Shown: in pieces, positions 127-14,099 of the stretch
How positions within the stretch are numbered: the first letter of the stretch is position 1
Layout: each line of letters begins with the position of its first letter
Source: Thermodesulfobacteriota bacterium
Lineage (GTDB): Bacteria > Desulfobacterota > Desulfobacteria > Desulfobacterales > JAUWMJ01
Length of the DNA: 35,035 bases
Direction of reading: 5' to 3'
Assembly: GCA_034189135.1 (NCBI GenBank)
Contig: JAXHVO010000132.1
Location: 1-35,035 of the forward strand
Translations under genes and position numbers: made by a program
The notes under the pieces: model-generated
The model's input: the letters and a program-made list of their open reading frames with translations, nothing else
The model's database searches: none
Told to the model about the DNA's origin: nothing

Positions 127-885
127 ACTGAAGAGAGAAATCCATTAAAACAAGGATTGAAACCTATTACCGCGAGAGGCTCGCATAAATGGTTTAACTG
201 AAGAGAGAAATCCATTAAAACAAGGATTGAAACCGCATATATCTTTGCTATTACCCCTGGAGGCTCGCAACTGAAGAGAGAAATCCATTAAAACAAGGAT
301 TGAAACTGCCTACTCGCTTGGTATGGGATGATTGGGAGGAAACTGAAGAGAGAAATCCATTAAAACAAGGATTGAAACGATCAGGTGGAGTTATTTCAGG
401 CTGATCAATAGGTACTGAAGAGAGAAATCCATTAAAACAAGGATTGAAACTTGGATTGCATGTGATGAAAGAGCTATTTAGTGCTGACTGAAGAGAGAAA
501 TCCATTAAAACAAGGATTGAAACCCTGCTCTACCTCAGTGCAATATGGCTCCGGTGGTACTGAAGAGAGAAATCCATTAAAACAAGGATTGAAACACTTT
601 TAGAGTGTCTTAAATGATCGTATCTGTTTTGCTGAAGAGAGAAATCCATTAAAACAAGGATTGAAACCCGGCGATCCTGCTTTAAACAGCAGCTTTATTA
701 CAACTGAAGAGAGAAATCCATTAAAACAAGGATTGAAACTTTCTTTGGTGCCATGTGTTACCTCCTGTGGGTTTATACTGAAGAGAGAAATCCATTAAAA
801 CAAGGATTGAAACTTCCCCGTAATGTAGAAGGAAGTGTCTTGTTTCATACTGAAGAGAGAATTCCATCAAAATCGGTAACCCTCA
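127..885 (+). CRISPR. CRISPR array, 10 intact repeats plus one degenerate, 10 spacers
   Basis: Intact 37-bp repeats start at 127, 197, 270, 342, 414, 487, 559, 631, 703 and 777. Each begins ACTGAAGAGAG and ends GGATTGAAAC; the copy at 631 has G instead of A at its first base. Spacers are 33-37 bp. The eleventh copy at 849-885 keeps the first part (ACTGAAGAGAGAATTCCATC) but has lost the 3' part, so the array runs left to right. The ATTGAAAC end fits the 5' handle of type I (such as I-B) and type III systems; without cas genes the type stays open. Reverse translation gives a repeated NPCFNGFLSSV peptide, a well-known false ORF. Confidence 0.97.
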
Positions 886-4264: not shown

Positions 4265-5107
4265 CTACTCCCAGAATTTATGGAAGTGGTGTACAGGACC
4301 ATGGCCGTGGCCTATTTTATACTTTGAACCGGCACGAATGGCTTCATTGATATATGCTTTGGCCTTTCTCACAGCTTCTTCAATTCCACACCCTTTTGCC
4401 ATACAGGAGGCAATGGCCGAAGAGAGTGTGCAGCCGGTTCCATGATTGTTTTTGGTCTTTATACGCTTTCCTTTCAGTACAACAAACCTGTCTTCTTTGG
4501 CAAGATACAGAAAATCACTACTGTCGTTGTCTTCAAGATGCCCGCCTTTTATAAGTACACTTCGGCTTCCGTATTCGGACAGATCTTTGGCTCCATTTTT
4601 TATATCCTTGAAATCGTGCAATTTACAATCCAGCAAAACCGATGCTTCAGGAAGGTTGGGCGTGACCACACTGGAAAGCGGCATCAGGTGTTTCTTAATC
4701 GCTTCAATTGCATTGTCTTTTAGCAGTTTATCACCACTTTGGGCCACCATTACAGGGTCCAAAACAATTTTATCGATCTTATACTGTTTCAATACCCGTG
4801 CGACTGTCTCGATCAATTCTGCGGAGTAAAGCATTCCGATCTTCACCGCATCCACACCGATATCAGAAAAAACAGCCTCCATCTGCTTTTCGGCAAAATC
4901 GGGCGGAACGGGTTGGATTCCTGTCACCCCTTTGGTATTTTGTGCGGTCAGGGCCGTAATCACAGACATGCCAAAGCAACCCATTGCGGCTATGGTTTTC
5001 AAATCCGCCTGTATGCCTGCCCCGCCTCCGCTGTCTGATCCGGCAATGGTGAGCACTTTGCGATATGTGCGACTTGTATTCTGATTATTGGAGTCTTTTT
5101 TATTCAT
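4265..5107 (-). CDS. thiD: Hydroxymethylpyrimidine / phosphomethylpyrimidine kinase
   Basis: A 280-residue cytosolic kinase that phosphorylates HMP and HMP-P to HMP-PP, the pyrimidine half of thiamin. It shows the ribokinase-fold ThiD signatures [17 protein letters not shown] (about 22-38), ALTAQNT, an [11 protein letters not shown] block and the anion hole [12 protein letters not shown] near residue 225. Length is normal for a single-domain ThiD. AGGAAGGA lies 7 nt before the ATG. It follows thiL in the same direction but is separated from it by 380 bp holding a large palindromic element, so co-transcription from the riboswitch is uncertain. The downstream gene is convergent rhomboid. Confidence 0.95.
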
Positions 5108-5150
5108 TTGGCTATCCTTCCTACTCTTTTGGAGATAATCCCAATTAATT

Positions 5151-5487
5151 GAGGGGCCGGGAAGTTTTTTATCAAAAACTTTTTTAGTGACCTGTTTGTG
5201 TTTTAATGATTGTCAGCGGTTCGTCTGGGGAATAGCCCATTCGCCCGTACAAGACTTAACAATAATATCGAGAAACTGATGTACGGCAGCTATCTCGCTG
5301 AGATTAGATCTGAGCTAGCCCCAGTAGATAGATTTCCACGGCGGCGACGATCGTCTCTGCCTGTATGAGCTTCGCAGAGAATAGGGGGCGCGTACAAAGG
5401 ACTATAATCATTTGTTAAGGTTTGTACGGGCGAATGGGCTATTCCCCAGACGAACGGTGCAGAAATTGAAAAACTCCCCGACCCCTC
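5151..5487. repeat. Outer inverted repeat enclosing structured element A
   Basis: Between thiL and thiD, 5151-5169 (GAGGGGCCGGGAAG then T-run) and 5469-5487 are reverse complements at 17 of 19 positions. They form an outer stem around the inner 34-bp stem of element A. The right arm starts directly after the thiL stop codon. The gap 5108-5487 contains no ORF of note and is almost entirely this nested palindrome. Confidence 0.7.
5219..5455 (+). repeat. Structured palindromic element, copy A (candidate ncRNA or mobile element)
   Basis: A 34-bp perfect inverted repeat (5219-5252 with 5422-5455), extended after a 2-bp mismatch by CTTAACAA / TTGTTAAG, closes a core of about 150 nt. The same arrangement occurs at 13859-14099. 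Core blocks identical in both copies are GTACGGCAGCTATCTCGCT (5281-5299), CCACGGCGGCG (5336-5346), GATCGTCTCTGCCTGTATG (5349-5367) and TCATTTGTTAAG (5408-5419). The core can pair GGCAG 5285-5289 with CTGCC 5357-5361, and GCCCC 5318-5322 with GGGGC 5385-5389, which cross as a pseudoknot. No coding frame runs through it. I do not recognise the family. The plus orientation is arbitrary. Confidence 0.8.
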
Positions 5488-6498
5488 TTATTTTGATTTA
5501 AAATGATCCCACCCTTTTGGTTTAAATTTTTTTGCTCGGCCTGACGAATCGATGATTTCCATTTTCCCCGGGTCTGTGATCTTTCCGATTGAATAAAGGG
5601 GGCGGTTAAAGGCTTTTAGATATTTTTGGGCCACTGTATCGGCATGATCCGGAGACACGGTGCATAACAAAATATAATCTTCGCCGCCGGCAAGGGCAAA
5701 TTCAACGGGATCAAACTCAAATCGGTTACAAAAATATTTCAGATTTGTTGAAACAGGGATTTTTTCAGCGTACAGGCTTACACCGACGTTGCTTTCCGTT
5801 GCGATGTGACCGATGTCGGAAGAAAGCCCGTCACTGACGTCTATTGCTGCATGCACACCGGTTTGAGATGCCAGAAAACGGCCCTCGCTTAAAAAAGGCC
5901 TTGGGAGAATATGCGAATGAAAAAGTTGTTTGAATTCCTTAGAATCAGCCGTTATATGATTCAGTATCAGATGCAGTCCTGCACGGCTGTCACCCAGAAA
6001 GCCGGTAGCGAAAATGATATCTCCGCGCCGTGCTGCATTTCTCAGGAGCAGTTCCTCCTTTGGAACACTCCCTGAAACAGAAATATTTATAATCAAGTCC
6101 TTCATGGAAAGAGTGGTATCGCCGCCAAGAATGTTGACATTAAATTTACCGGCCAAGTCTTTTATCCCACGGTAAACCTCTTCAAGAAAGTCGGTGGCGC
6201 AATCTTCAGGAATGGCAACACTGACAAACGCCTCTCTTGCGGTTGCCCCCATGGCGGCAATATCGCTCAAATTTACAGCCAGGGATTTATACCCCAGATT
6301 AAAACCGGTGGTGGCGTCGCGTATAAAATGGACCCGTTCAACCAGCAAGTCTGTGGTTACCACCGAAACAAGTCCGGTATCTGTAAAAAAGGCGGCCGCA
6401 TCATCACCGATTGCCCTGATTACACGGTCAGGACGGATTAAACAGCCCTGACTGATCTTTTCGATAAAACCGAACTCTCCGATATCTTTTAACTTCAT
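5488..6498 (-). CDS. thiL: Thiamine-monophosphate kinase
   Basis: A 336-residue ATP-dependent kinase converting thiamin phosphate to thiamin diphosphate, the last step of the pathway. It shows the PurM/AIR-synthase-like fold signatures of ThiL: GDDAAAF (about 32-38), TTDLLVERVHF (48-58), LGYKSLAVNLSDIAAMGA (about 69-86), ILGGDTT (about 122-128) and DVSDGLSSDIGH (about 220-231). Length is normal. The ATG overlaps the thiE stop by four bases (ATGA), which indicates translational coupling in the thiM-thiE-thiL unit. The stop codon abuts the outer arm of the palindromic element. Confidence 0.96.
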   Translation of the reverse strand: MKLKDIGEFGFIEKISQGCLIRPDRVIRAIGDDAAAFFTDTGLVSVVTTDLLVERVHFIRDATTGFNLGYKSLAVNLSDIAAMGATAREAFVSVAIPEDCATDFLEEVYRGIKDLAGKFNVNILGGDTTLSMKDLIINISVSGSVPKEELLLRNAARRGDIIFATGFLGDSRAGLHLILNHITADSKEFKQLFHSHILPRPFLSEGRFLASQTGVHAAIDVSDGLSSDIGHIATESNVGVSLYAEKIPVSTNLKYFCNRFEFDPVEFALAGGEDYILLCTVSPDHADTVAQKYLKAFNRPLYSIGKITDPGKMEIIDSSGRAKKFKPKGWDHFKSK

Positions 6499-7139
6499 GG
6501 GATACGTGCCTGCTTGATAATATCACTTAATTCCTCAGCGGCTTTGCGAGGATCAGCTGCGGAAACAATGGCTGATACCACGGCAATTCCGCTGGCACCA
6601 TTGATGATGACTTGGCCTGCGTTTTTTCTGTTAAGGCCACCGATGGCAACCTTGGGGATCTTTACCGCCAGGCTTATTTCCTTTAATCCCTCAAGACCAA
6701 GGGGTGGGGCTGTATCGGTTTTTGTCGGGGTTGAAAAAATCGGACTGACACCGATATAATCCGCACTGCCTTTTTCAGCTAAAATTGCATCCTCAACCGA
6801 TTCGGCGGATATTCCGATAATCATTGAACCTTGCAGAATATCTCTTGCCATGGTCAATGGCATATCTGTCTGGCCAAGATGTACCCCGTCTGCTCCAATG
6901 GCCTGTGCCACATCCACCCGGTCATTAATGATCAGCGGTATATTATGTTTTTTTAGATACTGTTTGATGGATAAGGCTTCATGGATATATTCAAGCGTAG
7001 AACAGTTTTTTTCCCGCAACTGAACACAGGTGACTCCTCCGGCAACACCGGCTTTGACAATCTCAAGGGTGGATCTTCCCCGGGAAAGACCTCTGTCGGT
7101 GACAAGGTATAAAGAATAATCGATTGAGGCAATTTTCAT
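6495..7139 (-). CDS. thiE: Thiamine-phosphate synthase
   Basis: A 214-residue TIM-barrel enzyme joining HMP-PP and thiazole phosphate into thiamin phosphate. Signatures are LYLVTDR near the N-terminus, GVTCVQLREKN, LIINDRVDVAQAIGADGVHL, HLGQTDMP, DYIGVSPIFSTPTKTD and VAIGGLNRKN. The ATG at 7139 has GAGGA about 9 nt upstream. A TTG at 7154, directly after the thiM stop, is possible but has no ribosome binding site at the right distance. It lies between thiM (15 bp upstream) and thiL (overlapping by four bases), and is expected to be under the TPP riboswitch. Confidence 0.95.
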   Translation of the reverse strand: MKIASIDYSLYLVTDRGLSRGRSTLEIVKAGVAGGVTCVQLREKNCSTLEYIHEALSIKQYLKKHNIPLIINDRVDVAQAIGADGVHLGQTDMPLTMARDILQGSMIIGISAESVEDAILAEKGSADYIGVSPIFSTPTKTDTAPPLGLEGLKEISLAVKIPKVAIGGLNRKNAGQVIINGASGIAVVSAIVSAADPRKAAEELSDIIKQARIP

Positions 7140-7154
7140 TTTAATATTCCTCAA

Positions 7155-7958
7155 TCATTCCTCAATTTGGCAGCCGGATTGCAGTTTTTCCGGGGTAATG
7201 AGATACAAGGCATCAAGCATCTTAATCATAAAACTCCCCGGTGCTTCTGCTTTTTCACCTGCTATCTCCCCTGCCATACCAAAGAAAGCCAGTGCGGTTG
7301 CCGTCGCGCTGAACGGGTCATCGTCCACCGCTAAAAATGCCCCGATCACTGCGGTTGCCGTGCATCCGGTTCCGGTCACACAGGACATAAGCGGGTGACC
7401 ATTGGAAACACGTACTATACGGTCCCCATCGGTAATCAAGTCAACAGAACCTGTAATGGCTAAAGTGGTTTGCAAATCTTCGGCCAAGGTTTTGGCAGCA
7501 TAAGAAGCATCTTCCACGCTGTGGATGGAATCAACGCCTTTGGTTTTTGATTCACTGTTTTTGAGTGATAGAATTTCCGATGCGTTTCCCCTGATCACGC
7601 TGATTTTGGTTTGATCAATAATTTTTTTGGCAGAGCTCGTCCTCAGTGATGTCGCTCCGGACCCAACCGGGTCGAGAACGATAGGCGTTTTCAGCGCGGT
7701 TGCTTTTCTCCCGGCTACAATCATTGAATCAATCCACTCATCGGTAAGTGTGCCGATATTGAGTACAAGTGCACCGGCAAAGGAGACCATTTGTTCGACT
7801 TCATTTGGGGCATGCGCCATCACCGGCGATGCACCCATGGCAAGAAGTACATTTGCCGTATAATTCATTACCACATAGTTGGTAATGTTGTGAATAAGCG
7901 GTTTTTTGTTTCTCACGGCATCCAGGTTTTTAGCCGCATTTAAAGCCAAGTTTTCCAT
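7155..7958 (-). CDS. thiM: Hydroxyethylthiazole kinase
   Basis: A 267-residue salvage kinase phosphorylating hydroxyethylthiazole. Family features are an N-terminal KPLIHNITNYVVMN block, the ANVLLAMGASPVMAHAPNEV region, LDPVGSGATSLRT and SCVTGTGCTATAVIGAF, which holds the catalytic cysteine region. The ATG at 7958 follows AGGAGA by 6 nt. A longer frame to 8033 exists but would run back toward the riboswitch terminator, so it was rejected. First gene of the thiM-thiE-thiL unit. Presence of thiM and absence of thiG/thiC/thiS here points to salvage, with de novo genes possibly elsewhere. Confidence 0.95.
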   Translation of the reverse strand: MENLALNAAKNLDAVRNKKPLIHNITNYVVMNYTANVLLAMGASPVMAHAPNEVEQMVSFAGALVLNIGTLTDEWIDSMIVAGRKATALKTPIVLDPVGSGATSLRTSSAKKIIDQTKISVIRGNASEILSLKNSESKTKGVDSIHSVEDASYAAKTLAEDLQTTLAITGSVDLITDGDRIVRVSNGHPLMSCVTGTGCTATAVIGAFLAVDDDPFSATATALAFFGMAGEIAGEKAEAPGSFMIKMLDALYLITPEKLQSGCQIEE

Positions 7959-8013
7959 GATTTTTCTCCTATCTTCTTTTACCGAGGAGAGACTGTAGAT
8001 AGAATTTAGACCA

Positions 8014-8046
8014 CAAAAAAAGCCGTTTTGCAAGGAAACGGCTTTG
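8014..8046 (-). terminator. Riboswitch-associated intrinsic terminator upstream of thiM
   Basis: On the minus strand AAAGCCGTTT pairs with AAACGGCTTT around a short loop, followed by a run of T. It lies between the TPP aptamer and the thiM ribosome binding site, so ligand-bound aptamer is expected to favour termination. This is the standard arrangement of a transcriptional OFF switch. Confidence 0.85.
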
Positions 8047-8073
8047 GGTGAATTTAGAAAATTCGTATGTGTC

Positions 8074-8146
8074 GTTTCCCTACGCTGGAATTATCCAGAT
8101 CAGGTTCAAAGGGTGTAATCTCAGGCGTCTTGCAGCCACCCCGCTA
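8074..8146 (-). promoter_or_regulatory. TPP (THI-box) riboswitch
   Basis: Read on the minus strand, the aptamer has the 5' GCGGGGTGGCTGC helix, the CTGAGAT motif followed by ACCC, then GAACCTGATCTGGATAAT and CCAGCGTAGGGAA, which are the conserved TPP-binding and closing segments. A terminator hairpin follows within 30 nt, then thiM. It controls the thiamin salvage genes. Confidence 0.97.
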
Positions 8147-8369
8147 GTTAAATTTTCTTTTTATATATCTCAAGCCCTAGCAAACCGGCACGTATAAGTC
8201 AAGAACTAAAATAACCGTTGGCACCATGTTGAAAAAGGAGAATCAAAGCATGACTGGAAGAGTTTATCCTTACGGATAATAAATATTCCTGCCAGCCGGT
8301 AATAAATCTTTACCAATACCCTGAAAACATACTACCTCCATATGTAACCAGAATCTGAAGCTGCTGGTT

Positions 8370-9281
8370 TTAATCCTCATCTTCATCTCTGTACTGATGT
8401 TTTTTAATTAAAAATCGGATAAACCCAATGACCGTTAACAATGCGCCGGAAAGAAACAGAAACTCATAAATATGGCCGGTCAGAAAAATAAACCAGGTGG
8501 TCGGCCTGTGTTGTCGCCTAATCCATTGATCTTCGATTTCTTCCGGTGAAGTATTCAGAGTTTCAGCAAATGCGGTGTGAATTTCATTTCCTTTTTGGAG
8601 ATGGTGTAAAATTTCAAATATGCTGTGGTCGCCATACCGGTCTGAGATAAAATCCACCACACTCCGGCTTTCGGCATACGCCAGCATAAGGTTCTTTTTA
8701 TCGGCGGGGAAGCGGTGATTTAGATCTCTCAAAGGTATATGGTTTCCCGACAGCAACGCCTCCTCAAAAATATACCGTTGCGGTGCTTCCAGCAACTCGG
8801 CCACGCCTTCACTAAGCCATTGAGCCACACCTTCGTCAAGCCACCGTGGCAGATGGGCACTCCTGATATGCCGGTGAAGAATCAGGTGGACCATTTCGTG
8901 CTTCAGGATTTGATCCAGCCGATGGGGGCGGATGTGCAGCCTGGAGCAGTCAATCACCATAAGATTTTCCGCCGGTGCTGCAAAGGCAACGATAAGCTTA
9001 TTCCCGCTGAGTCGTTGAAAATATTCTTTATGCTGAATCAGGAACACGGTCGGTCTGAAAGGCATCTTCCAGCCAAAAGTTTTTTCCAAATTCGATTTGA
9101 TAGGTGGATATATATGGACCACATCTTCGGCCATGCCTTTCAGCGGAGGTTCAAACCGGACCACCAATTCAGGGATAGATAGAAACTCCAGCTGAACCGC
9201 AAAAAGGGGTTGGGGCACCGGAGAACAAAAGATGATTAAAGAAATAAATAAAATTTTCTTTAGTTTATAGCTAGTTGTCAT
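8370..9281 (-). CDS. Membrane-anchored peptidase MA family metallopeptidase
   Basis: A 303-residue exported protein. The N-terminus is a signal peptide with a hydrophobic stretch around residues 9-28. The gluzincin zinc motif HEMVH sits near residues 128-132, followed by WLDEGVAQW (147-155), whose glutamate is the expected third ligand, as in the peptidase MA family. A transmembrane helix near residues 265-288 and a charged tail (YRDEDED) anchor the C-terminus. The catalytic domain should therefore face the periplasm. The ATG at 9281 was taken over a TTG one codon upstream; no clear Shine-Dalgarno is visible. Substrate unknown. It follows the SLC12-like gene in the same direction with a 126-bp gap. 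Confidence 0.8.
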   Translation of the reverse strand: MTTSYKLKKILFISLIIFCSPVPQPLFAVQLEFLSIPELVVRFEPPLKGMAEDVVHIYPPIKSNLEKTFGWKMPFRPTVFLIQHKEYFQRLSGNKLIVAFAAPAENLMVIDCSRLHIRPHRLDQILKHEMVHLILHRHIRSAHLPRWLDEGVAQWLSEGVAELLEAPQRYIFEEALLSGNHIPLRDLNHRFPADKKNLMLAYAESRSVVDFISDRYGDHSIFEILHHLQKGNEIHTAFAETLNTSPEEIEDQWIRRQHRPTTWFIFLTGHIYEFLFLSGALLTVIGFIRFLIKKHQYRDEDED

Positions 9282-9407
9282 CAAGCAAAAATGTTAAATT
9301 TTTTTGGATTTTTTCACCACGTCTAACGGGTGACATTTTCATAAAAAATTGCGTCTCTGGCTTAGTGAAATGCTTTAGCCTTTGGCACCTCGAACCATCT
9401 TCTTCAA

Positions 9408-12005
9408 CTAATCGGGAGAAGCGTCTTTCTTGTTGGGTTTTTCCACTTCAGGTTTTTCCGGCAAGACTCCGGCGGCTTCGGCTTCCAAAGCGGCTGTTTC
9501 GGCTTTAGCGGCCGCTTTGGCTGCTTTACGTGACATTTTGTTTGCCTGTTTTTCAGCATCTCTGGCTGTTTTTTCCGCTTTTGCTTGGAGATCTTCATTC
9601 ACCCCGGCGGGATCCGCCATCAGATTTTCCGCATTGTCTTTTGCCCTTTCAGCAGATTCAATCGCTTTCTCGGCCTCTTTTTCAGCCGCCTGCGCCTTTT
9701 TCTCGGCGTCTTCCAGTGCATCTGACGCTTGTGCCATCTCAGCAGCTTTGCCTTCCTCCGGCTCGGCATCCAGATCGATGTCTTCGGCAGCCATAACCAT
9801 CGCCACCACCGGCAAAAGAAAAATCGTACTCTCCATCGAATTGCCCAAAGGGTCCACCACCTGATTGTTCTTGATGCGAAATGGAAGAAAAACCACCGAA
9901 GAACCTGCTGAATACTCCGCGATGGTTTCGGCGCTGACATCCTCAACTATCTCCGGCTCAGCTTCAATACGTACTTCCTCCAGCATGGCCTTGAGGCTTT
10001 CAACTGATTGGTCGGCTTTTTGGTTGATATCGGCAGCCAGCAATCTGATCTTGGCTTCGTTCCACAGTTCATGCCGTGTCATCAAATAAGCAATCAGGAG
10101 CATCAGGCGACTGGTCGCATCACCCCACCACCAAATATCAATTTGCTTGGCGCTATCATCGGTTTCCTCAAGGGAAGTCCATTTATCTGTTTTCGCATCA
10201 AGAATGACAATATTGCAGCCATAAAAATGTGCCCAGCGAAGATTTTTACCAAAGTCCTCGTCAGTTAAGCTTAGAATTTTTTTAGCTACCTGGCCAAGCC
10301 AGTTGAGAATAATCGTGTTGGCTTTTAAAGATCCCACCCCGTATGCTTGAACCACAGCCTGGATACCGATTTGATGATTTGGGGCTGCAACCACAAGGGG
10401 AAACGCACGGGCACCGTGTTGAATAATATCCCGTTGAAGCTGTGCCTGAGCTTCCTCTTTCATCTTTCGCATTTTCAATCCCTGGCCTTCAAGAATTCGC
10501 ACGGCGGTGGTTATCCCGCTGCCACCTTCAATCCAGGAGGAAAAGCGAAGAAGTTGAGCACGGCGCTCAGGATTATTTGAAAAAGCCAGGATCTGTGGAC
10601 GCCAGTAGCGCGGATGTTCCGGCTCTTCGGCGGCAGCCAACAAATGCTCCCTGGCAAGCTGAAGGTGATATGATCTGCGGCTGTCTGCCCAACGTGAAGG
10701 GCCGGCGGTTCGCTTAAGGTATTGAAAAATAGCAAACAACACTGCAACGGCGACGATTCCGGCATAAAGACCAACCGCCAGCATGGTGCCCAGGCACGCC
10801 AATGCCCCGACCAAACTGATCCATTTATTAAAATAGCGAAACCGGGGACGAAACGATGGGCTGGCCGAACGCGCCTCATAATAGGTGGCATAATTTAAAA
10901 GACCGTAGGAAATTAAAAAAAACATGGAAACGACCGGAGCAATCAGATTAAGACGCCCGTAAGCGATGGTTATGTAAGCAATACAGGCAGCCAGTAAAAC
11001 GCCTCGTCTCGGATTTTCGGCAGGTCCTGAGCCTTTTGCAAACATTACCAGAAATGGAAAAGTCCGGTCACCGGCCAGTGATTGCAGAATACGCGGAGCA
11101 CCCAGGAAAGAAGCCATGGCAGAAGACAAAGTGGCCGCAATCACACCGGCGGTAACAAGGAAGTCTATAACGGCCACCTTTTTCATTGCACCGTAATCGC
11201 TCATCATGATATCAGCCGGCAGTGCAGCAGCAAATATCACTGCGGATAGAATATAAACGACGATGGATACACCCACGGCCGTGAATGTACCACGTGGCAA
11301 GCTTTTCCCCGGATCCCTTAAATCTCCGGACATGCTCACCCCCTGGGTAAAGCCGGTGACCGCCGGGAAAAAAATAGCAAACAATACCCAGAAACCCAGG
11401 TTCGATTGCGGTGAAGCCCAGTTTTGGATCAACCGGGCAGTATCCCATCTGACAAATCCGCCGATAAAGAATGAAAGGATGGCTGCAGCCAGGATACCCA
11501 TAACCACATATTGAAATTTTGTTGCCCAATCCGCTCCCAGCCAGGCGAAGATAAATAAAAAAGAAACCGCCAAGGCGGCAATAATTTGAGGAAGAATACT
11601 GGAATTATTCGGCAGCAATGCGGCCAAGGCCTCGCCGAATCCGAGGCAATAAAACGCAATGGAGACCGCCTGGGCCAGAAAAACAACAATGCCGATGGCA
11701 CCGCCGAATTCAAGCCCGAGGGTACGGGAAATCAGGTAATAATCGCCACCGCCTTTAACTTTAAGATTGGTGGAAATGGCGGAAAGGGAAACGCTGGTCA
11801 ATACTGAAATACCATTGGCCAAAAGCAATATAACCAGGGTAAGGCCCAGACCGGCATTACCGACCACATAACCCAGTCGAAGAAATAGAATGATACCCAG
11901 GATAGTTAAAATGCTTGGGGTGAATACACCGGCAAATGTACCCAGCGTGCCTTTGGTTCCAGAAGTGCCGGATTTGTTATTCGGGATTGCAACATTGGTT
12001 TTCAT
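9408..12005 (-). CDS. SLC12-like (cation-chloride cotransporter type) APC permease with Ala-rich coiled-coil tail
   Basis: An 865-residue integral membrane protein. Residues about 20-445 hold roughly twelve transmembrane helices of the APC superfamily, with the N-terminal GTFAGVFTPSILTILGIILF segment typical of Na-K-Cl cotransporter relatives and a GGDYYLISRTLGLEFGGAIG block. A soluble region (about 450-740) resembles the SLC12 cytoplasmic domain. The last 120 residues (from about 744) are rich in Ala, Glu and Lys with heptad-like spacing, predicted as a coiled coil, followed by a Pro/Lys-rich end. The transported ion or amino acid cannot be read from sequence. It stands alone; the upstream TPR gene is 126 bp away in the same direction. 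Confidence 0.82.
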   Translation of the reverse strand: MKTNVAIPNNKSGTSGTKGTLGTFAGVFTPSILTILGIILFLRLGYVVGNAGLGLTLVILLLANGISVLTSVSLSAISTNLKVKGGGDYYLISRTLGLEFGGAIGIVVFLAQAVSIAFYCLGFGEALAALLPNNSSILPQIIAALAVSFLFIFAWLGADWATKFQYVVMGILAAAILSFFIGGFVRWDTARLIQNWASPQSNLGFWVLFAIFFPAVTGFTQGVSMSGDLRDPGKSLPRGTFTAVGVSIVVYILSAVIFAAALPADIMMSDYGAMKKVAVIDFLVTAGVIAATLSSAMASFLGAPRILQSLAGDRTFPFLVMFAKGSGPAENPRRGVLLAACIAYITIAYGRLNLIAPVVSMFFLISYGLLNYATYYEARSASPSFRPRFRYFNKWISLVGALACLGTMLAVGLYAGIVAVAVLFAIFQYLKRTAGPSRWADSRRSYHLQLAREHLLAAAEEPEHPRYWRPQILAFSNNPERRAQLLRFSSWIEGGSGITTAVRILEGQGLKMRKMKEEAQAQLQRDIIQHGARAFPLVVAAPNHQIGIQAVVQAYGVGSLKANTIILNWLGQVAKKILSLTDEDFGKNLRWAHFYGCNIVILDAKTDKWTSLEETDDSAKQIDIWWWGDATSRLMLLIAYLMTRHELWNEAKIRLLAADINQKADQSVESLKAMLEEVRIEAEPEIVEDVSAETIAEYSAGSSVVFLPFRIKNNQVVDPLGNSMESTIFLLPVVAMVMAAEDIDLDAEPEEGKAAEMAQASDALEDAEKKAQAAEKEAEKAIESAERAKDNAENLMADPAGVNEDLQAKAEKTARDAEKQANKMSRKAAKAAAKAETAALEAEAAGVLPEKPEVEKPNKKDASPD

Positions 12006-12131
12006 AACTGGTTAGAAAGTAGCTCCTCTGTCAAGTCTTGAGATTAGAGGGTTCGGATTGGGTAAGCCGACCATGAGCTCTCTTTGTATTTTGTTATTTG
12101 AAATTACCGTTTTAAGTGATGTGTTTTTCAG

Positions 12132-13748
12132 CTATAATCTTGCTTTCAAACTTTCATATCGTCTACAAGCCTCTTTGTTTCCCAAACCACAGGATTTTTC
12201 CAAATCGTGCAATGCTCTTTCAAAATCTTTATTATGATAGTACGTACCGGCTCTTTCAAGATATGCTGTGGCATGATCGGGTTCCAGTTCAAGAAATCTG
12301 TTCCAGTACTCGATTATTCTACTCCACTGTTTTTCTTTGGCGAGGATATAATCCACCATTCGATATGACTCAAAATGATGAGGATTAATTTCTATGACAC
12401 GATTAAAATCTGATAATGCGGATTGGAAATCTTCTAATTGAAAAAAGGCAACACCTCGCCAGTAATAGGATTCAAAATTGTCATTATCGAAATCAATGGA
12501 CAAGTTATAATTCTCAAAAGCCGCATCATTATCTGTTTTAATCAGCCTATAACCTTTATTTAATAGTTTTTTAGATGCCCACTCTTTCCATTTTATGGTT
12601 GAAGGATCACCGGGTCTTAAAAGCTCCGCTGTACGCAGATCTTCCAAGGAATCACTATAGTTACCCTTGGCAAAATATATTCTGGACCGCATTCGATAAA
12701 TTTTATCTATTACAGGGCGAAGTTCAATACATCGATTAATATCTTCAAGAGCACTATCATACTCCTTTAAGTCAAAATGATAAATCTTTACCCGCTCATA
12801 ATAAATCGACCATTGGTCACCAAATGTAAGGGCTTTCGTTAATAGATCTATTGCTCTTTTATATCTCTTATTGCGTCTATTCATTCTACTTCTATCGTAG
12901 TATATTAAGCCATATAACGCGGTGAGTTCCGGATTAATAGCGGAATATTTTTCAGCTTGTTTTGCGATGTCTTCCATATCTTTATAGCTTCCACCCCATC
13001 GCGGTTGTTTCGCCCAGGCACCGACATATCTGACAAGAAAAGAATGGGGAAATAACGCTGTGGCGTTTTCAATCGTTTCGTCTTCAGCCGCATCATTTCC
13101 GGTAGCGTTATAGATATTTATTAATAGATTATAGCCTACCATTAAATCAGGGTTGATTTTAAGTGCTATTTTAAGATTTTCCTCCGCCTTTGAGAAATAG
13201 AATCGCATCCCTTCAAATTGTTCTTTCGATGTCTCTTTTTTAAATTTATACCCCCTGCTCTCCCAGCCTTTTGCACAATAATAATTTGCAAGAGCAAGGT
13301 AGGGCTGATATTTGTCAGGGGAATTGTTTATCCACTTTACAAAGAGTGCTTCGTACAAAGAATCAGTCAAATAAAAGGTGCGATAGGCATCATAAACCTT
13401 ATATTCATCGGTTTGATCTTCTGTAAAACAATGCTGATATTTTTTCAAAACAGCATTGAGCCGCTCAAACTCATGATTTTGGAGCATATCTCTCAGGTTA
13501 ATTATTTGTGCTATGTCGATGGTTTCTTTTGCTTCTGTTAGGATGGGAAGGTCTTTCAATGGCTTTGTTACTTCATAACCTTTACTGCCGAATACCTGTT
13601 TTAAATATGACCGCGGGTTAATATATTTAACGGCCACAATGGTAGAAAATACCAGCACCCCGATAACAATCATACTTAAAAATATAGAGCCGAAAATACT
13701 GTTCTCATTTTTATCAAACTGATTTTGATGGTCATCAACAGGTTGCAT
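12132..13748 (-). CDS. Membrane-anchored TPR-repeat protein
   Basis: A 538-residue protein with a short cytosolic N-terminus, one transmembrane helix (about 20-42, IFGSIFLSMIVIGVLVFSTI) and a long domain of tetratricopeptide repeats. Clear repeat units have the pattern ALxDxxxxIExxPxxxxxYxxR, for example SALEDINRCIELRPVIDKIY, DSLEDLRTAELLRPGDPS and SALSDFNRVIEINPHHFES. The topology places the repeats in the periplasm. It is likely a scaffold or assembly factor, without an assignable partner. AAGGAT lies 9 nt before the ATG. The gene looks more AT-rich than its neighbours. It is transcribed away from the perR gene, with element B between them. Confidence 0.75.
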   Translation of the reverse strand: MQPVDDHQNQFDKNENSIFGSIFLSMIVIGVLVFSTIVAVKYINPRSYLKQVFGSKGYEVTKPLKDLPILTEAKETIDIAQIINLRDMLQNHEFERLNAVLKKYQHCFTEDQTDEYKVYDAYRTFYLTDSLYEALFVKWINNSPDKYQPYLALANYYCAKGWESRGYKFKKETSKEQFEGMRFYFSKAEENLKIALKINPDLMVGYNLLINIYNATGNDAAEDETIENATALFPHSFLVRYVGAWAKQPRWGGSYKDMEDIAKQAEKYSAINPELTALYGLIYYDRSRMNRRNKRYKRAIDLLTKALTFGDQWSIYYERVKIYHFDLKEYDSALEDINRCIELRPVIDKIYRMRSRIYFAKGNYSDSLEDLRTAELLRPGDPSTIKWKEWASKKLLNKGYRLIKTDNDAAFENYNLSIDFDNDNFESYYWRGVAFFQLEDFQSALSDFNRVIEINPHHFESYRMVDYILAKEKQWSRIIEYWNRFLELEPDHATAYLERAGTYYHNKDFERALHDLEKSCGLGNKEACRRYESLKARL

Positions 13749-13858
13749 GTTTTTATTATCCTTTTTTTATTGCCTGAATTCAATACCTATTTAGATACAA
13801 AAATAGATTTTTTATAAATTTTCATGTCTGACTGGGCACAACCAAGCATGAAACCTAA

Positions 13859-14099
13859 GGTTCAACCGGGGAATAGCCTATTGGCCCGTTACCAGACATA
13901 CCAATCTTATCTAGAAATGAAGGTACGGCAGCTATCTCGCTTCAATTAGATTTGAGCCAGCCCCAGGGGACAGAATCCCACGGCGGCGTTGATCGTCTCT
14001 GCCTGTATGGATTTAACTGAGAAGATAGGGGGTGTGTCACATACCGCTCTCATTTGTTAAGTCTGGTAACGGGCCAATAGGCTATTCCCCGGTTGAACC
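13859..14099 (+). repeat. Structured palindromic element, copy B (candidate ncRNA or mobile element)
   Basis: A perfect 39-bp inverted repeat (13859-13897 with 14061-14099) closes a core homologous to 5219-5455. Identical core blocks lie at 13923-13941, 13978-13988, 13991-14009 and 14050-14061. Arm bases differ from copy A at 13864, 13865, 13867, 13879 and 13883, and each change is matched on the other arm. Similarity continues past the right arm (ATTGAAAAAC in both). It fills most of the 13749-14280 gap between the divergent TPR and perR genes, upstream of the perR promoter. Confidence 0.8.

What the first reader, a model, noticed from the sequence alone, without database searches (positions are those of the whole stretch)
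5219..14099. Two copies of an unrecognised ~240-bp structured element with compensatory base changes
The intervals 5219-5455 and 13859-14099 share a layout: long perfect terminal stem, conserved core, same orientation. Five stem positions differ between the copies (5223, 5224, 5226, 5238 and 5242 in A; 13864, 13865, 13867, 13879 and 13883 in B), and every change is compensated on the opposite arm, so pairing stays perfect. Core blocks of 11-19 nt are identical, while linkers differ. Neither copy contains an ORF. This points to selection on a folded RNA or ssDNA, or to a non-autonomous mobile element copied in hairpin form. I know no family with these sequences.
Basis: seen in the sequence. Interest (0 to 1): 0.85.

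Follow-up and report, generated by a model that had tools for sequence, protein, structure and literature searches.

The report
Invertible palindromic core of a MITE
The two "structured elements" are the inner part of a small mobile DNA element present in dozens of copies in this bacterium; their matching stem changes most likely arise because the two DNA arms copy each other, not because an RNA is folded, so this is a good warning case for RNA-hunting by covariation.

Summary
In detail: all five compensated stem differences check out. The interpretation changes. The 237-bp unit is the interior of a ~337-bp non-autonomous transposon (MITE). This genome holds at least 40 copies; over 80 distinct modules were collected in all. 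Copy A spans 5151-5487 and has imperfect terminal repeats GAGGGGTCGGGGAGTTTTTC. The same repeat bounds MITEs with unrelated interiors in 38 of 291 genomes of the order and in none sampled elsewhere in the phylum. Of 104 repeat-bounded elements, 33 have identical 8-bp flanking duplications (0.9 expected). A same-genus genome lacks copy A: thiD and thiL are adjacent there.

The stem is a ~44-bp inner inverted repeat, on average 94% identical within a copy, while arms differ ~22% between copies. Mismatches show no G·U excess (G·T 32, A·C 38), the core folds no better than shuffles, and all double changes lie in the arms. The stem-core-stem block sits in both orientations relative to the outer ends (31 vs 40; nearly random on a tree). 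This fits DNA-level arm homogenisation plus spacer inversion (recombination or template switching), not RNA selection. Copy B shares the module but has other outer ends, unresolved. No transposase was found.

The parts
5151..5487 (+). Copy A: whole type-A MITE, 337 bp, inserted between thiD (5107..4265, -) and thiL (6498..5488, -)
   Evidence: TIR hits at 5151-5170 (+, 3 mismatches) and 5468-5487 (-, 0 mismatches); element boundaries and length; thiD and thiL adjacent without it in G001
5151..5170 (+). Left outer terminal inverted repeat GAGGGGCCGGGAAGTTTTTT
5171..5218 (+). Left outer segment (asymmetric, conserved among type-A copies)
   Evidence: flank alignment; 40 scored matches in the genome
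5219..5262 (+).
   Evidence: 42 of 44 Watson-Crick with 5412-5455
5263..5411 (+). Core (spacer) of the inner inverted repeat, copy A
   Evidence: alignment; no core covariation
5412..5455 (+). 3' inner inverted-repeat arm, copy A
5456..5467 (+). Right outer segment
   Evidence: flank alignment
5468..5487 (-). Right outer terminal inverted repeat GAGGGGTCGGGGAGTTTTTC (exact), ending directly at the thiL stop codon
13815..14140 (+). Copy B: same inner module in a type-B context; outer limits inferred from where the type-B copies stop being alike; no type-A TIR and no TSD found
13859..13904 (+). 5' inner inverted-repeat arm, copy B
13905..14053 (+). Core, copy B
14054..14099 (+). 3' inner inverted-repeat arm, copy B

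Best explanation
[quoted passage not shown] A transposase encoded elsewhere (not found) presumably recognises the outer repeat GAGGGGTCGGGGAGTTTTTC and inserts the element into AT-rich sites, duplicating 8 bp. TIRs, duplications and the empty allele are shown; the transposition chemistry is inferred. Inside lies a second, ~44-bp inverted repeat around a ~150-bp core. Recombination or polymerase template switching between these arms inverts the core and copies one arm onto the other. That keeps the arms nearly identical within a copy while they drift apart between copies, which produces the compensated changes. The two orientations and the arm identity are shown; that they come from one process, and the choice between recombination and template switching, are inferred.
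For: At least 40 full copies in the genome and 85 module records overall. TIR with up to 3 mismatches: 68 hits vs 0 for the reversed control. TSD: 33 of 104 elements identical over 8/8 flanking bases vs 0.9 expected on shuffled pairing; at least 7/8 in 46 vs about 5. Empty site: thiD and thiL adjacent in same-genus genome G001. Orientation of the module relative to outer ends: type A 31 forward, 40 reverse, both in G000 (23/26) and G001 (6/10); at least 20 changes on the core tree vs 23.5 for shuffled labels; also one flip in the distant genome G026 (L078). Arm divergence 0.062 within a copy vs 0.224 between copies; core 0.195. Mismatch symmetry G.T 32, A.C 38, transversions 51. Both effects, arm homogenisation and spacer inversion, are described for template switching in PMC8604942 (see also PMC8794818), and IS inversion by TIR-TIR recombination in PMC3004938.
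Against: No autonomous element or transposase carrying these TIRs was found. Copy A itself has no recognisable TSD (AATTAATT vs TTATTTTG). Copy B and the other type-B copies lack the type-A TIRs and no TSD was seen. Arms are also kept paired in G026 after strong divergence, which selection on pairing would predict too.
Confidence: 0.85

Rival explanations
1. The stem is a functional RNA (or dsRNA processing) structure: copies are kept because their transcript folds, and compensatory mutations were selected.
For: Very stable predicted stem; 33 of 52 consensus pairs have changes on both sides; one core hairpin CAGCTATCTCGCTG is replaced in many copies by another hairpin GTCCGCC(N)GGCGGAC.
Against: No G.U excess: 32 G.T vs 38 A.C mismatches. 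All two-sided changes lie in the terminal arms, none in the core helices. Core alone folds no better than shuffles, z = +1.1. Module orientation relative to flanks is near random. No Rfam match.
Confidence: 0.06
2. Pairing is selected at the DNA level: the inner hairpin or cruciform is needed for transposition, replication or local gene regulation, so mutations that break it are lost.
For: Symmetric G.T and A.C mismatches fit DNA pairing as well as conversion. Arms stay paired in G026 although their sequences have diverged. Several unrelated interiors with the same TIR also contain sub-terminal inverted repeats.
Against: Elements with deleted core or arm are found with perfect TSDs (L121 core deleted; L129 one arm and core deleted, 9-bp flank identity), although the deletions may postdate insertion. 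Frequent inversion already supplies a mechanism that homogenises arms without selection.
Confidence: 0.12
3. The 237-bp module is itself an independent mobile or invertible cassette that inserts in either orientation into hosts A and B (for example by a site-specific recombinase).
For: The same module sits in type-A and type-B contexts and in both orientations in each. In G026 the homologous core lies in the same TIR background.
Against: No module was seen outside these contexts. The junction with the outer segments is constant, as inversion in place predicts, and no duplicated bases appear at the module's own ends.
Confidence: 0.06

Closest known systems
Bacterial MITEs in general (review PMC10969869)
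   Same: 50-500 bp, non-coding, outer TIRs, short TSDs, high copy number, no transposase of their own.
   Different: TIR sequence GAGGGGTCGGGGAGTTTTTC was found in no paper held; autonomous partner unknown; a second, inner 44-bp inverted repeat with an invertible core.
Correia repeat enclosed elements of Neisseria
   Same: Small palindromic intergenic elements with conserved core that are reported to invert (PMC10969869, PMC2649163).
   Different: Sequences were not compared here; different hosts; here the inverting part is internal and the outer ends stay fixed. Promoter, IHF or RNase III functions were not tested.
IS inversions by TIR-TIR recombination in Wolbachia (PMC3004938)
   Same: Recombination between inverted repeats flips the interior of a transposon in place.
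   Different: There 9% of IS loci and the terminal repeats; here about half of the copies and an internal repeat of a MITE.
Template-switch homogenisation of inverted repeats (PMC8604942, PMC8794818)
   Same: Arms are made identical and the spacer may be inverted, giving apparent compensatory mutations.
   Different: Described there in yeast coding genes and in RNA genes; here in a high-copy bacterial element where both outcomes are seen side by side.

Membership tests
MITE (non-autonomous DNA transposon) | Outer terminal inverted repeats | tested here: met
   Copy A: 5151-5170 and 5468-5487; 68 TIR hits vs 0 control genome-wide
MITE (non-autonomous DNA transposon) | Target-site duplication of fixed length | tested here: met
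   8 bp; 33 of 104 perfect vs 0.9 expected. Copy A itself: not recognisable
MITE (non-autonomous DNA transposon) | Empty site in a relative | tested here: met
   thiD-thiL adjacent in G001, one locus
MITE (non-autonomous DNA transposon) | No coding capacity, 50-500 bp | tested here: met
   337 bp, no ORF of 80 aa or more
MITE (non-autonomous DNA transposon) | Autonomous partner with the same TIRs (usual, not required) | tested here: inconclusive
   None seen between TIR pairs in G000, G001, G002, G026, G067 and others; the search was not exhaustive
MITE, type B (window copy B) | TIRs and TSD | tested here: inconclusive
   About nine copies with shared limits but no type-A TIR and no clear TSD
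Structured non-coding RNA family | Covariation beyond what DNA processes give, with G.U intermediates | tested here: not met
   G.T 32 vs A.C 38; no core covariation
Structured non-coding RNA family | Match to a known Rfam family | tested here: not met
Structured non-coding RNA family | Transcription as a defined RNA | not testable with these tools
   no RNA data

The most novel reading that the evidence does not exclude
The inner hairpin and its conserved core are selected, as a DNA cruciform or as a regulatory switch flipped by inversion near gene ends, so that the family is a genome-wide set of invertible intergenic elements with a function for the host or for transposition.
Probability: 0.12. 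Interest if true: 0.75.

Novelty: new member of a known kind. Interest (0 to 1): 0.42.

Why it matters
It shows on a large natural sample that nearly perfect compensatory covariation can arise without RNA selection, most likely through arm-to-arm copying in a mobile palindrome whose core also flips. That is a direct warning for covariation-based RNA discovery, and the mismatch symmetry plus the inversion count offer a simple test. It also defines an apparently undescribed transposon end shared by many unrelated MITEs across one bacterial order, with about 180 ends in one genome, whose transposase remains to be found.

Tried and rejected
Rfam at gathering and at E <= 1: nothing for the element. 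Core as stable RNA: z = +1.1. Search for an autonomous element: unpaired TIRs in the own genome are degraded or deleted copies or chance matches; a 3.1-kb TIR pair in G067 proved to be two separate MITEs with host genes between; a 6.3-kb pair likewise encloses ordinary genes. Viral contigs: no TIR and no core match. Literature: no paper contains the TIR. Empty site for copy B in G001/G002: flanking genes not syntenic. Outward promoter at the right end of type B: consensus matches only, not pursued. Covariance model R1 was built but not needed once the element limits were clear. attC/integron-like and retron-like readings were considered and dropped because of the TIR and TSD evidence.

Full report
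1. The observation. The two intervals fold as described: uninterrupted terminal stems of 34 bp (A) and 39 bp (B), energies far below shuffled sequence. Every one of the five compensated differences was confirmed base by base, and there are at least two more, one of them a compensated one-base insertion. No ORF of 80 aa or more and no Rfam family overlaps them.

2. It is a high-copy repeat. A search of the window's own genome (4.6 Mb, 140 contigs) with copy A gave 40 scored full or near-full places at 74-100% identity, out of 101 raw candidates. A profile over all loci fetched gave 85 module records (a few listed twice, once per strand), mostly from this genome and from G001 of the same genus. 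A core about 75-78% alike is present in G026, a genome of another family of the same order, with strongly diverged arms that still pair. A scan of about 85,000 genomes with a core pattern found only MAG CSMAG_1936 and Desulfobacterales bacterium S5133MH16 (the window's own genome may be left out there).

3. Flanks are conserved too. Type-A copies begin with ...GAGGGRTCGGGGAGTTTCTTATCAATGGCC... and end with ...GAGATTGAAAAACTCCCCGACCCCTC. These are terminal inverted repeats: 68 hits at up to 3 mismatches in the own genome against 0 for the reversed control. Copy A therefore runs from 5151 to 5487, ending next to the thiL stop codon. Over 104 repeat-bounded elements, from this and other genomes, 33 have identical 8-bp flanks where 0.9 is expected after shuffling the pairing, and 46 match in at least 7 of 8; the set includes a few alternative end pairings of the same element, which can only dilute the result. 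In G001 the genes thiD and thiL, which flank copy A here, are adjacent with no element between them. Copy A itself has no clear duplication.

4. The terminal repeat marks a wider superfamily. With at most one mismatch it occurs in 38 of 291 genomes of the order and in no sampled genome of other orders of the phylum. One complete chromosome (G067) has 183 ends at up to 2 mismatches of a 19-base version, against 2 for the control. These elements are about 110-360 bp long with unrelated interiors, several of which hold their own sub-terminal inverted repeats, and many have perfect 8-bp duplications. No transposase was found between any repeat pair examined.

5. The inner block flips. Relative to the asymmetric outer segments, the arm-core-arm block lies in one orientation in 31 type-A copies and in the other in 40; both genomes with many copies show the mixture (G000 23/26, G001 6/10), and in G026 one copy (L078) is flipped relative to the others. 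On a tree of cores the orientation needs at least 20 changes, against a mean of 23.5 for shuffled labels (10% of shuffles reach 20 or fewer), so it carries little history. Inversion between the arms is the simplest account.

6. Why the stem covaries. Within a copy the arms differ by 6% on average (median 4.5%), between copies by 22%, and cores by 20% between copies. Selection on RNA pairing should leave G.U as the commonest departure on one strand. Over the 85 module records there are 32 G.T, 38 A.C and 51 other mismatches among about 3600 aligned positions: no excess on either strand (p = 0.55). All pairs with two-sided changes lie in the arms; the two core helices that RNAalifold proposes have none, and the core folds no better than its shuffles. 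Arm copying by recombination or template switching, which also inverts the spacer, explains both facts with one process. Such effects are published for yeast genes and RNA genes (PMC8604942, PMC8794818), and inversion between terminal repeats for Wolbachia IS (PMC3004938). Which of the two processes acts here is not shown, and DNA-level selection for a cruciform is not excluded.

7. Copy B. It has the same inner module but different outer ends, shared by about nine copies: left ...CATAAATTTTCATGCCCGACTGGGCACAACGAAGCATGAAACC, right ...GATTGAAAAACGACTGTTTGTTTCTAATGAATAT. One locus (L003) has a type-A left end followed by the type-B left segment, so type B probably derives from type A by a nested insertion or replacement; this is inference. 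Its duplication and empty site remain unknown.

8. Limits. The genomes are mostly metagenome assemblies; copy numbers are lower bounds and orientation could in principle be misassembled, although the arms (44 bp) are shorter than a typical read. The tree rests on about 150 columns. Only one empty site was examined. Transposition by an outside transposase is inferred from TIR and TSD, not shown.

Noticed in passing
window 127-813: CRISPR array, nine or more direct repeats matching Rfam CRISPR-DR7 on the + strand.
   Followed up: no
window 8060-8153 (-): TPP riboswitch upstream of a thiamine cluster (thiM/thiE/thiL/thiD-like ORFs 8033..4265, all on the minus strand); copy A sits inside this cluster.
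   Followed up: no
L041 and L067 (left part of the element), L156 (in the core): A second small repeat family (ends like ATACYGYTTGCCATAAATATGTTCCG, with a CGTTTCGATAACGGAACG hairpin) is nested inside copies of this MITE; its ends resemble the left end of type-B copies.
   Followed up: partly
L002, L027, L040, L062 and others, in the core; also L179, L203 and L235: A core hairpin CAGCTATCTCGCTG is swapped for GTCCGCCT(N)GGCGGAC in many copies, and similar GC-rich hairpins sit in unrelated MITEs with the same TIR; in the own genome most of the exact sites lie in these elements.
   Followed up: partly
L121 (G002): Element whose core is deleted so that the two arms form an almost loopless hairpin, with TIRs and a perfect 8-bp duplication ATTTAACT.
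   Followed up: no
L019, L022, L025 (type-B copies): At least three type-B copies lie just upstream of a gene start in the same orientation (a Fur-like gene in the window, an Mrp-like ATPase, another ORF), so the right end could affect expression.
   Followed up: no
L169, L211 (G249): A 128-bp element with the same TIR has an interior GTCATTCCTGCGAAGGCGGGAATCCAG, which resembles (from memory) the neisserial dRS3-type palindrome ATTCCC...GGGAAT.
   Followed up: no
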